Made by a program: the position numbers and the translations under genes. The notes under the pieces are model-generated. The model saw only the letters and a list, made by a program, of their open reading frames with translations, was not told the DNA's origin and ran no database searches. DNA of 54,088 bases, taken from a virus. Each line of letters opens with the position of its first letter. The first letter of the stretch is position 1. Below are positions 11,314 to 13,851 of the stretch, in pieces. Where the stretch lies: the IMG/VR virus record IMGVR_UViG_3300037264_002957, positions 1 through 54,088 of that record; one strand, given 5' to 3'.

Positions 11314-11465
11314 TTCGTCGCGGTTACTGGTTACGGCTACATGCTGCTTGCATAGCAGTTCCCCCAACCATCCTCGTGAGGCCATCGTTCGGTGGCTTGA
11401 CGGGGCCGGGATTGGGGGAACCAACCCGGTCCACCACAACAACCGTCCCGACTTACCGTGACGAA
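11314..11465 (+). ncRNA. Structured RNA 1 of 3, candidate Y RNA
   Basis: A 10-bp basal helix, TTCGTCGCGG (11314-11323) with CCGTGACGAA (11456-11465, one G-U), leads to an internal loop with TTACTGGTT on the left and CCCGACTTA on the right, then ACGG/CCGT. The TTACTG/CGACT pair recurs in the two RNAs downstream. The internal module has a hairpin (GCTGC-TTGCATA-GCAGT) and the inverted repeat GTTCCCCCAA (11358-11367)/TTGGGGGAAC (11412-11421). That repeat competes with a second hairpin at 11403-11433. No full tRNA can be drawn and there is no T-tract at the end. Confidence 0.5.
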
Positions 11466-11480
11466 CATTGAGATTGAAAT

Positions 11481-11625
11481 TCGCGTCTACTGAACGGCTT
11501 ACATGATTCCTGGTTCGAATCCGGGATCCCCCATTCATTACGGGGGATTAGCCAAATGGTAAAGGCAACAGACTTGTAATCTGTCGTGCGCAAGCACAAG
11601 CCGATCGACTCGACGCGATGTTTTT
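11481..11625 (+). ncRNA. Structured RNA 2 of 3: permuted tRNA-Thr(TGT)-like module on a Y-RNA-type stem
   Basis: Basal helix TCGCGTC (11481-11487)/GACGCGA (11612-11618), internal loop TACTGAA/ATCGACTC, then helix CGGCTT (11495-11500)/AAGCCG (11598-11603). Inside, the tRNA parts appear out of order. The T arm CCTGG-TTCGAAT-CCGGG comes first, then 3' acceptor strand ATCCCCC, a 9-nt loop and 5' acceptor strand GGGGGAT. D arm GCC...GGC, anticodon arm ACAGA-CTTGTAA-TCTGT and a GCAA-capped hairpin follow. All tRNA stems are intact. The basal helix is followed by TGTTTTT, a terminator-like end. Confidence 0.72.
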
Positions 11626-11630
11626 GGGAT

Positions 11631-11753
11631 TGCCGGTTACTGCGCAGCTTACATGCAGCTCAACGGTTGAGCATTTGCCCAGAGCAAAGGGTTGTTGGTT
11701 CGATTCCAACCATACGCGAAAGCGTAGCAGCGCGACTCGCCGGCATGTTTTTT
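11631..11753 (+). ncRNA. Structured RNA 3 of 3: tRNA-like module closed by a GAAA tetraloop on a Y-RNA-type stem
   Basis: Basal helix TGCCGG (11631-11636)/CCGGCA (11740-11745) has TTACTG on the left and CGACTCG on the right, as in RNA 2. Inside are D arm GCTC-AACGGTT-GAGC, a short anticodon-like hairpin TTTGC-CCAGA-GCAAA and T arm GTTGG-TTCGATT-CCAAC. The acceptor strand ATACGC is joined by GAAA directly to its partner GCGTA. It therefore has no free 3' acceptor end and cannot be an ordinary tRNA. TGTTTTTT (11746-11753) ends the unit, 15 nt before the Ro60-like gene. Confidence 0.7.
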
Positions 11754-11768
11754 CAGGGGTGAACGGTC

Positions 11769-13265
11769 ATGGCTGAAGTCGGCCTCACAAAGCAGCGCAT
11801 CATCGCGGAACTGACGAAGTCCCCGCACGGCAAGCTCGAGGCGTACGTGCCGGTCGGGCGCCAGGCGGTAGATAGCGATCCGGAATTCTTCGCGCACCTC
11901 ATCGCGTGGGCCGCGGTCAAGAGCGAGATCCGGGACGTCAAGGTGGCACTGCCGGTGTTGGCGCTGGCGCACAACGACAACCGAGAGTTCAGCGAGAACG
12001 CACTCGCGCACCTGGCGGATCTGGCGCCGCGCGATCTCCTGCGCGCGCTCGACTTCGCGCGGTTGTTGAAGCATCACCCACGGTACCTGCGCAGGTTTGT
12101 GGAGCGCTACCTGCGCGACCTCGAGGCGGACCGGCACGGGTTCGACCGGACGGCGCTCCAACATCGGCAGACGGTGAAGCGGCTCTACGCGCTGTACCAC
12201 GTGGCGCCTGGGGCCCACGCGGCGGCGTGCTTGTTTGGCGAGGCGCCGAAGGGGTCGGTGTTTGACGTCGTGAAGCGTCTGGATGCGATGAGCCCGTCCG
12301 AAGCGGCCGGGGCCATCATCGGCCGGAAGATTCCGTTCCTGATTGCCGCCGGCGCGCTGAAGGCGAAGCTGAAGGAGCCGGACGTCGTGATGGCGCTCAT
12401 CAAGGCGATGTCTCCGACCGAGCTGGTCACGAACATGAAGTTCTTGGAAAAGCTCGGGGTCAAGACGGACCCAGCGCTCCGGGCGGCGCTCGATGAGGCG
12501 CTGGCCAAGGCCGCGACGAGCCGGAAGCCGAAGGCGTCCATGAAGGCCTCGACCGCGGCGGCCGCCCAGACGGACGAGAAACTGCAAGCGCAGTTGCACA
12601 AGCTGCAGGAACAGCAGCTCGACCAGATGGTGATCAAGGGCAAGTGGCTCGTCCTGGGCGACAAGAGCGGGTCTATGCAGGAAGCGATCGCGATGTCGAT
12701 CGAGATTGCGGCGATGCTGGCGCGGACGGCTGAGCAGGTCTCCCTGGTGTTCTTCGACTCCGGGCCGCGCTACATCGAGGCGACCGGCAAGACGCTGTTG
12801 GAGCTGAAGATCGCGTGCCGTCACATTACGGCGCACGGCAACACGTCGATTGGCTGCGGCGTGCAGTACGCGCTCGAGCGTGGCCTGGACGTGGACGGGA
12901 TTGCGATTATCAGCGACGGTGGCGAAAACACCGTGCCGATCTTCGCGCCGGCCTACCAGCAGTTGACGAAGAAGCTGGACAAGATCATCCCGGTCTATCT
13001 GTACCTGATGTCGGGGTCCTGCGCGAACGTGCTGACGAAGAACTGCGCGCTGGTCGGGATCGACGTCCAGGAGTTCGACCTGCGCGGCGGCGTGGACAAG
13101 TACTCGTTGCCGAACTTGGCGAAGACCATGCGGGCGAATCGCTACAGCCTCGTGGACGAAATCATGGCGACGGAATTGAAGGTGTTGGATGGCGTACTCA
13201 AACAGACAAAGGGACAGGAGGTCCTTCGTGGATCAGTTGACACAGTTGAAGCGGCTCGATCTTGA
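11769..13265 (+). CDS. Ro60-like vWA protein (probable Y-RNA-binding RNP protein)
   Basis: This is a 498-residue protein from ATG 11769 with GGGGTGA upstream. Residues 1-250 are helical repeats (PHGKLEAYVPVGRQA, DPEFFAHLIAWAAVKSEIRD, then RFVERYLRDLEAD and RKIPFLIAAGALKAKLKEPD) in the style of the HEAT-like ring of Ro60. Residues 290-440 are a von Willebrand A domain with an intact metal site: GDKSGSM (DxSxS), HGNTSIG (Thr) and ISDGGEN (Asp). Ro60/Rsr proteins hold Y RNAs and misfolded RNA in the ring. Location right after three tRNA-mimic RNAs supports that reading. The vWA call is firm; the Ro60 relationship is by architecture and context. Confidence 0.72.
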   Translation: MAEVGLTKQRIIAELTKSPHGKLEAYVPVGRQAVDSDPEFFAHLIAWAAVKSEIRDVKVALPVLALAHNDNREFSENALAHLADLAPRDLLRALDFARLLKHHPRYLRRFVERYLRDLEADRHGFDRTALQHRQTVKRLYALYHVAPGAHAAACLFGEAPKGSVFDVVKRLDAMSPSEAAGAIIGRKIPFLIAAGALKAKLKEPDVVMALIKAMSPTELVTNMKFLEKLGVKTDPALRAALDEALAKAATSRKPKASMKASTAAAAQTDEKLQAQLHKLQEQQLDQMVIKGKWLVLGDKSGSMQEAIAMSIEIAAMLARTAEQVSLVFFDSGPRYIEATGKTLLELKIACRHITAHGNTSIGCGVQYALERGLDVDGIAIISDGGENTVPIFAPAYQQLTKKLDKIIPVYLYLMSGSCANVLTKNCALVGIDVQEFDLRGGVDKYSLPNLAKTMRANRYSLVDEIMATELKVLDGVLKQTKGQEVLRGSVDTVEAARS

Positions 13266-13542
13266 CACGATCGAGCTTGACCAGGCCGTGGCGTACGAGG
13301 TGTTCGCCAAGCAGTTGCGCGCGGGGTTCGAAGCGCGACAGCTCGACGTGCCGGAGTGGCTCAATGACCAGTTGCGCGGGTTGAACCGGACGATCGAGTC
13401 CAAGGTGGCCGACCGGAAGGCGCTGCGGATCCGCGAGCTGAAGACGGGGCTCGCGAACCTCGAGACGCCGGCCGAGAAGCGCGCGCGGCTCAAGACCGAA
13501 CTCGATGCGCTTGAGGGCGCACCGGTTGCCGTCGGTCAGTAA
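13228..13542 (+). CDS. Helical hypothetical protein downstream of the Ro60-like gene
   Basis: This is a 104-residue protein. GTG 13228 is chosen over ATG 13189 because a perfect AGGAGG ends 5 nt before it. It overlaps the end of the vWA gene by 38 nt. It is almost entirely charged helix (DQAVAYEVFAKQLRAGFEARQ, ADRKALRIRELKTGLANLET), probably a coiled coil. Coupling to the vWA gene suggests a partner role. No family is known to me. Confidence 0.65.
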   Translation: MDQLTQLKRLDLDTIELDQAVAYEVFAKQLRAGFEARQLDVPEWLNDQLRGLNRTIESKVADRKALRIRELKTGLANLETPAEKRARLKTELDALEGAPVAVGQ

Positions 13543-13578
13543 AACAGCACGCCGGCGCTTGATGCGTCGGCTGGGGAG

Positions 13579-13617
13579 AAAGGGGGGGCAGGCGCGCGCG
13601 CAGCGTCTGTCCCCTTT
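13579..13617 (+). terminator. Probable (possibly bidirectional) terminator hairpin
   Basis: AAAGGGG pairs with CCCCTTT (7 bp) with an inner CAG/CTG helix. A-tract and T-tract flank it symmetrically, but the T-tract is only three bases, so efficiency is uncertain. Confidence 0.45.
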
Positions 13618-13656
13618 ACGTCGTCAGGCGATCGCGCGGCTCGGAGGATTAGCTCG

Positions 13657-13851
13657 ATGGAAGCAGCAGAAATGATCTACCCGTGGCACTTCATTCCGGT
13701 GGCGAACCTCGCATCTGGGGAGCGACTGGACGAACTCGAAGCCATGATGATTCTGCGCGCGTCGGAAACGCCGAGGCTCGAGGGCAACACGGCGGTCCTG
13801 GTGGACGTGTCCGAGGCGATGGATGACGCCAGCGCGCTACCGAGTTCCTGA
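13657..13851 (+). pseudogene. Truncated TROVE/Ro60-type vWA fragment
   Basis: This is a 64-residue frame from ATG 13657 with GGAGG upstream. It reads IYPWHFIPVANLASGERLDE, then LEGNTAVLVDVSEAMDD. The order (Y/F)PFxFI..A, helix, L.G.TxVLVDxSxxM is what precedes and opens the vWA domain in TROVE/Ro60 proteins. The expected SGSM is SEAM here and the rest of the domain is absent. It is best read as the broken junction piece of a second Ro60 gene, though a short functional peptide cannot be excluded. Confidence 0.5.

What the first reader, a model, noticed from the sequence alone, without database searches (positions are those of the whole stretch)
11314..13851. A phage Ro60/Y-RNA-like locus with three tandem RNAs
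Seen: three consecutive structured RNAs (11314-11465, 11481-11625, 11631-11753) each have a basal helix interrupted by an internal loop with TTACTG (or TACTG) on the left strand and CGACT on the right. Two enclose tRNA-like modules and end in T-tracts. The next gene encodes a helical-repeat plus vWA protein with intact MIDAS, then a TROVE-like fragment. Known: bacterial Ro60 (Rsr) genes sit beside Y RNAs whose modules mimic tRNA, and some phages carry them. Inference: this is a phage RNP, with three RNAs per Ro protein and a conserved two-sided loop as the likely Ro-binding site.
Basis: partly seen in the sequence, partly recalled or inferred. Interest (0 to 1): 0.92.

Follow-up and report, generated by a model that had tools for sequence, protein, structure and literature searches.

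The report
Phage Ro60-like protein with tRNA-mimicking RNAs
A bacterial virus carries a distant relative of the human Ro60 protein together with three small RNAs that share a conserved docking stem and, in two of them, a built-in tRNA look-alike; the same gene-plus-RNA-array arrangement recurs in many other phages and bacteria, which points to a large and little-recognised branch of the Ro/Y-RNA systems.

Summary
Three consecutive RNAs (11314-11753) share a covarying basal stem, a two-sided loop (UAC / ACUY, flanked by UG / CG) and a UACAUG element. A scan for this architecture finds exactly these three in the 54-kb window. The next gene is a full-length Ro60 homologue: AlphaFold pLDDT 91, the best 13 PDB matches are all Ro60/Rsr/TROVE, and the MIDAS residues are intact. 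It is divergent: no member of its family reaches the Pfam TROVE profile. I found about 25 phage and 30 bacterial relatives. In the phage clade the stems occur 46 times upstream of the gene and 0 times in three control regions. With arms paired by motif alone, 88% form at least 6 of 7 base pairs, against 8% for swapped partners. RNA2 is a circularly permuted tRNA (Thr, TGT); relatives nest whole tRNAs, permute them at two breakpoints, or (a 595-kb phage) carry the stem as a fifth tRNA arm. The bacterial branch sits with ThiF/E1-like and JAB genes. The 'TROVE-like fragment' is weak; a conserved ~100-aa gene (13228-13542) is the real next member. Phage Ro/Y loci were known, so this is a new variant. 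Binding and mechanism are untested.

The parts
11277..11306 (+). Promoter-like site TTGACG-N18-TAAAGT just 5' of RNA1
   Evidence: Consensus scan, 9 of 12; 2 sites found in the kilobase against 0.3 expected. Suggestive only.
11314..11465 (+). RNA1: stem 11315-11324/11455-11464, loop UAC 11325-11327 / ACUU 11451-11454, UACAUG 11338-11343; module of two hairpins, not a recognisable tRNA
   Evidence: Fold z -4.42; two-sided scan hit
11481..11625 (+). RNA2: stem 11481-11487/11612-11618, loop UAC 11488-11490 / ACUC 11608-11611, UACAUG 11500-11505; circularly permuted tRNA-Thr(TGT) module in the order T-arm, acceptor, D-arm, anticodon arm, then a GCAA hairpin; T5 tail
   Evidence: Fold; Rfam tRNA 25.6 bits and YrlA 14.2 bits, both sub-threshold; ARAGORN on the doubled module; GNRA hairpin
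11631..11753 (+). RNA3: stem 11631-11637/11739-11745, loop UAC 11638-11640 / ACUC 11735-11738, UACAUG 11650-11655; unpermuted D/anticodon/T-arm module without acceptor stem, GAAA hairpin; T6 tail
   Evidence: Fold; Rfam tRNA 34.2 bits, above the gathering score
11769..13265 (+). Ro60-like protein, 498 aa: helical-repeat (TROVE-type) ring part plus vWA domain with intact MIDAS
   Evidence: PHROG_850 RNA-binding protein E 2e-7; profile against PDB TROVE E 5.6e-10, Ro60 4e-6; AF2 pLDDT 91.4; Foldseek Ro60/Rsr
13228..13542 (+). Small helical protein (~104 aa, GTG start, AGGAGG upstream), overlaps the end of the Ro-like gene
   Evidence: Homologues directly downstream of the Ro-like gene in 12 of 19 phage-clade loci; AF2 pLDDT 82.9, three long helices; no Pfam family above cut-off
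13657..13851 (+). 64-aa ORF, possible truncated end-of-TROVE/start-of-vWA remnant (LVDVSEAM)
   Evidence: tblastn to cr106_1 TROVE protein, 36.5%, E = 0.08; no PDB match. Weak.
11107..11266 (+). Two ordinary tRNAs (Phe GAA, Lys CTT) directly upstream of the RNA array
   Evidence: Rfam and ARAGORN

Best explanation
This is a phage-encoded Ro/Y-type ribonucleoprotein locus. Shown by sequence: a divergent Ro60 homologue preceded by an array of RNAs, each made of one conserved docking stem (with a UAC/ACUY loop and UACAUG) plus a variable, mostly tRNA-like module. Inferred: the Ro-like ring binds the stem, so that every RNA displays a tRNA-shaped module on the ring. Inferred, about 40% likely as the main role: these modules tether the ring to host enzymes that handle tRNA-shaped or structured RNA, with PNPase the prime candidate by analogy with Deinococcus Rsr/Y RNA. 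The complex would then steer decay or quality control of host and damaged RNA during infection. The confidence given is for the RNP identity, not for that last step.
For: Fold and profile homology to Ro60/Rsr/TROVE over the full length. Stems beside the gene in phages (46 upstream against 0/0/0 in controls), huge phages (9 against 0) and bacteria (57 against 3/2/0). Stem covariation with arms paired by motif only: 88% with at least 6 of 7 pairs against 8.4% for swapped partners. tRNA features of the modules: T-loop motif in 22/46 and 45/66 against 0.7 and 1.6 expected; ARAGORN tRNA in 31/115 joined modules against 0/575 shuffles. Rfam YrlA (bacterial Y RNA) matches fall on the RNAs of bacterial relatives (E 2e-7 to 1e-6) and pass the cut-off once in the L159 genome. 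Known precedent: bacterial Ro60 with tRNA-mimic Y RNA tethers PNPase (PMC8394870, PMC4726728).
Against: No binding or expression data. The window RNAs do not reach the YrlA gathering score and the protein does not reach Pfam TROVE. No PNPase or RtcB gene was seen beside the locus. L142 keeps the gene without a visible array. The modules are more complete tRNAs than YrlA, with anticodon arms, which the PNPase-tether model does not require.
Confidence: 0.85

Rival explanations
1. tRNA decoy array: the Ro-like protein stabilises tRNA mimics that soak up host anticodon nucleases or other tRNA-directed defences, protecting the phage's real tRNAs.
For: Many modules carry complete anticodon arms with differing anticodons, unlike YrlA; the locus sits among ordinary phage tRNAs; a decoy role for the YrlA tRNA-like domain has been proposed (PMC7790460).
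Confidence: 0.25
2. Permuted or interrupted tRNA genes: the docking stem is an intron-like element that is removed, and the modules mature into functional tRNAs.
For: Joined modules are called tRNAs with anticodons; in L001 the stem sits inside tRNA-shaped sequences whose ends are normal tRNA ends.
Against: About a quarter of the called anticodons start with A (AAA, AGT, ATT, ATA, AAC, AAG), which bacteria hardly use (own knowledge); acceptor strands are closed by arbitrary loops; about half of the phage-clade modules lack a T-loop motif; no splicing enzyme is linked.
Confidence: 0.06
3. Cis-acting leader: the array is the 5' region of the Ro-like mRNA and serves autoregulation (Ro binding its own leader) rather than making trans-acting RNAs.
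For: The RNAs lie 5' of the gene on the same strand; the only plus-strand promoter-like site lies before RNA1.
Against: RNA2 and RNA3 end in stem-plus-T-tracts as free RNAs do; the tRNA mimicry and the number and variety of copies are unnecessary for autoregulation; other genes can lie between RNAs (L122, L124).
Confidence: 0.07
4. Chance or ordinary tRNA genes misread as Y RNAs.
For: The RNAs lie in a tRNA cluster.
Against: Control regions give 0 hits and swapped arms do not pair; the protein is a Ro fold.
Confidence: 0.01

Closest known systems
Bacterial Rsr + YrlA/Y RNA (Deinococcus, Salmonella; Chen et al. 2013/2014, as summarised in PMC8394870 and PMC4726728)
   Same: Ro-fold ring with vWA; RNA genes beside it; basal stem binds Ro; module resembles D, T and acceptor arms of tRNA in circularly permuted order (PMC11472068).
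   Different: Protein below the Pfam TROVE profile; two-sided UAC/ACUY loop plus UACAUG element; many RNAs per locus; near-complete tRNAs with anticodon arms, at two breakpoints, nested or five-armed; no RtcBA operon seen.
Phage Ro60/TROVE proteins (Thermus phage phiLo 9L5Y, crAss-like, Gordonia, mycobacteriophage, Listeria CKA15, jumbo phages)
   Same: Phage-encoded Ro fold; CKA15 has highly transcribed putative Y RNAs within 2 kb (PMC12282133); jumbo phages with TROVE (PMC7824862).
   Different: Different clade: tblastn with the window protein finds only one named phage record, LR756511.1; Foldseek identity to phiLo Ro60 about 15%.
Rfam RF02553 YrlA
   Same: RNA2 has the same permuted arm order over model positions 26-82.
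   Different: 14-15 bits against a gathering score of 69.
Metazoan Y RNAs
   Same: Basal helix with unpaired nucleotides on both strands; the ACUU of the right strand recalls the vertebrate 3' strand (own knowledge).
   Different: No sequence homology; no tRNA mimicry in vertebrate Y RNAs (own knowledge); bacterial Y RNAs are considered non-homologous (PMC4726728).

Membership tests
Ro60/Rsr (TROVE) proteins | Helical-repeat ring domain followed by vWA, Ro60-like fold | tested here: met
   AF2 pLDDT 91.4; Foldseek top 13 PDB hits all Ro60/Rsr/TROVE, TM 0.56-0.69, E down to 1.6e-10
Ro60/Rsr (TROVE) proteins | Sequence homology over the whole protein | tested here: met
   Profile of 47 relatives: TROVE protein E 5.6e-10 over positions 24-398; Ro60 4e-6; Rsr 0.007
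Ro60/Rsr (TROVE) proteins | Passes Pfam TROVE (PF05731) or NCBIfam Rsr cut-off | tested here: not met
   No TROVE hit in 47 members; vWA_Ro60 sub-threshold in 4; NCBIfam Rsr 17.7 bits against a cut-off of 900 in one relative
Ro60/Rsr (TROVE) proteins | Intact MIDAS in vWA | tested here: met
   D298, S300, S302, T359, D383, at least 90% invariant
Ro60/Rsr (TROVE) proteins | Binds Y RNA on its outer surface | not testable with these tools
   Needs gel shift or a structure of the complex
Bacterial Y RNA (YrlA type) | Encoded beside a Ro gene | tested here: met
Bacterial Y RNA (YrlA type) | Basal stem formed by the RNA ends | tested here: met
Bacterial Y RNA (YrlA type) | Permuted tRNA-like domain | tested here: met
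   RNA2 only; RNA3 is unpermuted, RNA1 has none
Bacterial Y RNA (YrlA type) | RF02553 gathering score | tested here: not met
   14.2-15.4 bits in the window; one RNA in a bacterial relative's genome passes, 69.2 bits
Bacterial Y RNA (YrlA type) | Module binds PNPase | not testable with these tools
   Needs pull-down

The most novel reading that the evidence does not exclude
The docking stem is a permutation-tolerant handle on near-complete tRNAs. Phages and bacteria use one Ro-binding stem in closed-permuted (two breakpoints), nested and five-armed tRNA forms, so that many different tRNA mimics are displayed by one Ro-like ring. The Ro-like family, with a ubiquitin-like conjugation operon in bacteria, would be a separate, unannotated branch of the Ro/Y world.
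Probability: 0.4. Interest if true: 0.85.

Novelty: new variant of a known kind. Interest (0 to 1): 0.72.

Why it matters
It adds a divergent Ro60 branch that standard profiles miss, present in about 25 phage contigs and 30 bacterial genomes, with a readable RNA code: a two-sided loop and a stem that can be mutated. Because one stem is combined with many tRNA-like modules and several permutations of them, comparing the forms could show what part of a tRNA shape the Ro ring presents and to whom. That bears on the open question of what Y RNAs and Ro60 do, and on why phages carry them.

Tried and rejected
Single-protein scans of viral and genome contigs found nothing; alignment queries were needed (against 24, 38, 39). 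The DNA pattern TTACTG-N-GCTTACATG in viral contigs returned over 100 chance-like hits and was dropped. phmmer of the single protein against PDB gave nothing. A YrlA search at E<=1 rings in 13 of 14 control genomes, so weak hits were ignored. Per-pair counts on scan-selected hits are biased by the pairing criterion, so covariation was retested with motif-only pairing. Chance tRNA clusters and real permuted tRNA genes were considered and put low. Key papers (Chen 2014, Sim 2020) are not in the library held, so what they list for phages could not be checked. The idea that the bacterial E1/JAB operon is a published system could not be confirmed.

Full report
What is in the sequence. The window is a whole IMG/VR virus record of 54,088 bases from a P22-like phage: P22 portal and coat proteins. 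Between two tRNAs (Phe, Lys) and a 498-aa gene lie three RNAs. Each has a 7-10-bp basal stem, a loop with UAC on the left and ACUU/ACUC on the right, then U-G and G-C pairs, a second helix, and the single-stranded element UACAUG. RNA2 and RNA3 end in T-tracts; a promoter-like site precedes RNA1. A scan for the architecture finds these three places only, on either strand; Markov-1 random sequence of the same size gives 0.3.

The modules. RNA3 carries D, anticodon-like and T arms in normal order without an acceptor stem (Rfam tRNA 34.2 bits). RNA2 carries T-arm, acceptor, D-arm, anticodon arm: a circularly permuted tRNA, the order seen in the Rfam YrlA model (14.2 bits over model positions 26-82). 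ARAGORN calls it tRNA-Thr(TGT) only when its ends are joined. RNA1 has two hairpins and no clear tRNA.

The protein. Single-sequence searches are weak: PHROG_850 'RNA-binding protein' E 2e-7, Pfam vWA_Ro60 E 0.01. With 46 relatives aligned, the profile reaches a TROVE protein at E 5.6e-10 over almost the full length, Ro60 at 4e-6 and Rsr at 0.007. The AlphaFold model (pLDDT 91.4) has all 13 best PDB matches among Ro60, Rsr and TROVE proteins, including the Ro60 of Thermus phage phiLo. The MIDAS residues are conserved. None of 47 members hits Pfam TROVE.

Relatives. Alignment-based scans gave 27 viral and 30 bacterial loci, plus a 595-kb phage. The tree puts the window in a phage-only clade (100/100), apart from a clade of bacteria (Cyanobacteria, Chloroflexota, Planctomycetota and others) and huge phages. 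After removal of duplicates, the stem architecture occurs 46 times in the 3 kb upstream of the phage-clade genes and 0 times on the opposite strand or downstream; in huge phages 9 against 0; in bacteria 57 against 3, 2 and 0. To avoid circularity, arms were paired by motif only: 25 of 34 have 7 of 7 stem pairs and 88% at least 6, against 8.4% for swapped partners and 12% for swaps within one phage. Fifteen of 19 distinct phage-clade loci have strict hits. L144, L147 and L153 have the same architecture with a changed right strand. L142 has none.

A modular RNA family. T-loop motifs occur in 22 of 46 phage-clade and 45 of 66 other modules (0.7 and 1.6 expected), GNRA hairpins in 15 of 46 (1.9 expected). 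Of 115 modules, 6 are called tRNA as they stand and 31 when joined; 575 shuffles give none. By inspection of sequence and folds, the break lies between variable region and T-arm (window RNA2, L124 at 5053) or between D and anticodon arms (L122 at 5067, L164, L174); L124 at 4833 and L001 at 4786 nest a whole tRNA. In L001 at 3961-4082 the stem is a fifth arm between D and anticodon arms of a tRNA-shaped RNA with normal acceptor ends; at 1780-1906 the Rfam tRNA model spans a 55-nt insert that contains the stem. In bacterial relatives, YrlA matches fall on these RNAs, and one RNA in the L159 genome passes the cut-off. That ties the family to bacterial Y RNAs.

Gene context. In the phage clade a ~100-aa helical protein (window 13228-13542) follows the Ro-like gene in 12 of 19 loci. 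In the other clade the Ro-like gene is followed by a ~300-aa unknown, a ThiF/E1-like protein (13 loci) and sometimes a Prok-JAB peptidase.

How it probably works. Shown: co-located Ro fold and covarying stem-loop RNAs with tRNA-like modules. Inferred: the stem docks on the ring. Inferred by analogy with RYPER (PMC8394870, PMC4726728): the module recruits PNPase or another tRNA-handling enzyme, about 40%. Decoy function is the main rival, about 25%; it draws on the intact anticodon arms and on the proposal in PMC7790460.

Novelty. Phage Ro proteins and Y RNAs are known (PMC12282133, PMC7824862, PMC12363180; by my own knowledge Chen 2014 counts over 250 bacterial and phage species, but the paper is not held). 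New here, as far as could be checked: a divergent family outside the TROVE profile, arrays of many RNAs, near-complete tRNA modules in several permutations, five-armed tRNAs, the shared two-sided loop, and the E1/JAB-linked bacterial branch. I file it as a new variant of a known kind.

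Noticed in passing
L001 1780-1906, 1990-2117, 2250-2373, 3961-4082: In a 595-kb phage (LR756511.1) the Y-type stem, closed by a short hairpin loop, appears to be inserted inside tRNA-shaped RNAs, giving five-armed tRNAs; the best-supported cases are 1780-1906 and 3961-4082.
   Followed up: partly
L164, L171, L174, L179, L001, L151 and other clade-B loci, downstream of the Ro-like gene: Conserved operon of a ~300-aa unknown protein, a ThiF/E1-like protein and a Prok-JAB peptidase, with a small possibly ubiquitin-like protein upstream in some.
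   Followed up: partly
L180 5983-7920 and L181 5959-7920: Myxococcota Ro-like proteins with a C-terminal EF-Tu domain-3-like region (E 7e-6 to 9e-6, just under the Pfam cut-off), possibly a tRNA-binding add-on.
   Followed up: no
L183 2832-5435: Ro-like gene of a Planctomycetota genome interrupted by an intein with a LAGLIDADG domain.
   Followed up: no
L185 2843-2987 (cr106_1): By eye, a tRNA-like sequence with a long insert in its anticodon arm lies just downstream of the TROVE gene of a crAss-like phage; Rfam reports nothing there.
   Followed up: partly
window 13228-13542: Small helical protein conserved beside the Ro-like gene in phages; function unknown, probably a partner.
   Followed up: partly
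window 14100-14230: GGTCATCCCA...TGGGACTGACC can pair around a TTACTG-containing stretch; it does not meet the scan criteria.
   Followed up: no
L142, 900 bases upstream of the gene: A relative that keeps the Ro-like gene but shows no RNA array; the upstream DNA looks transposase-like and HNH-like by eye.
   Followed up: no
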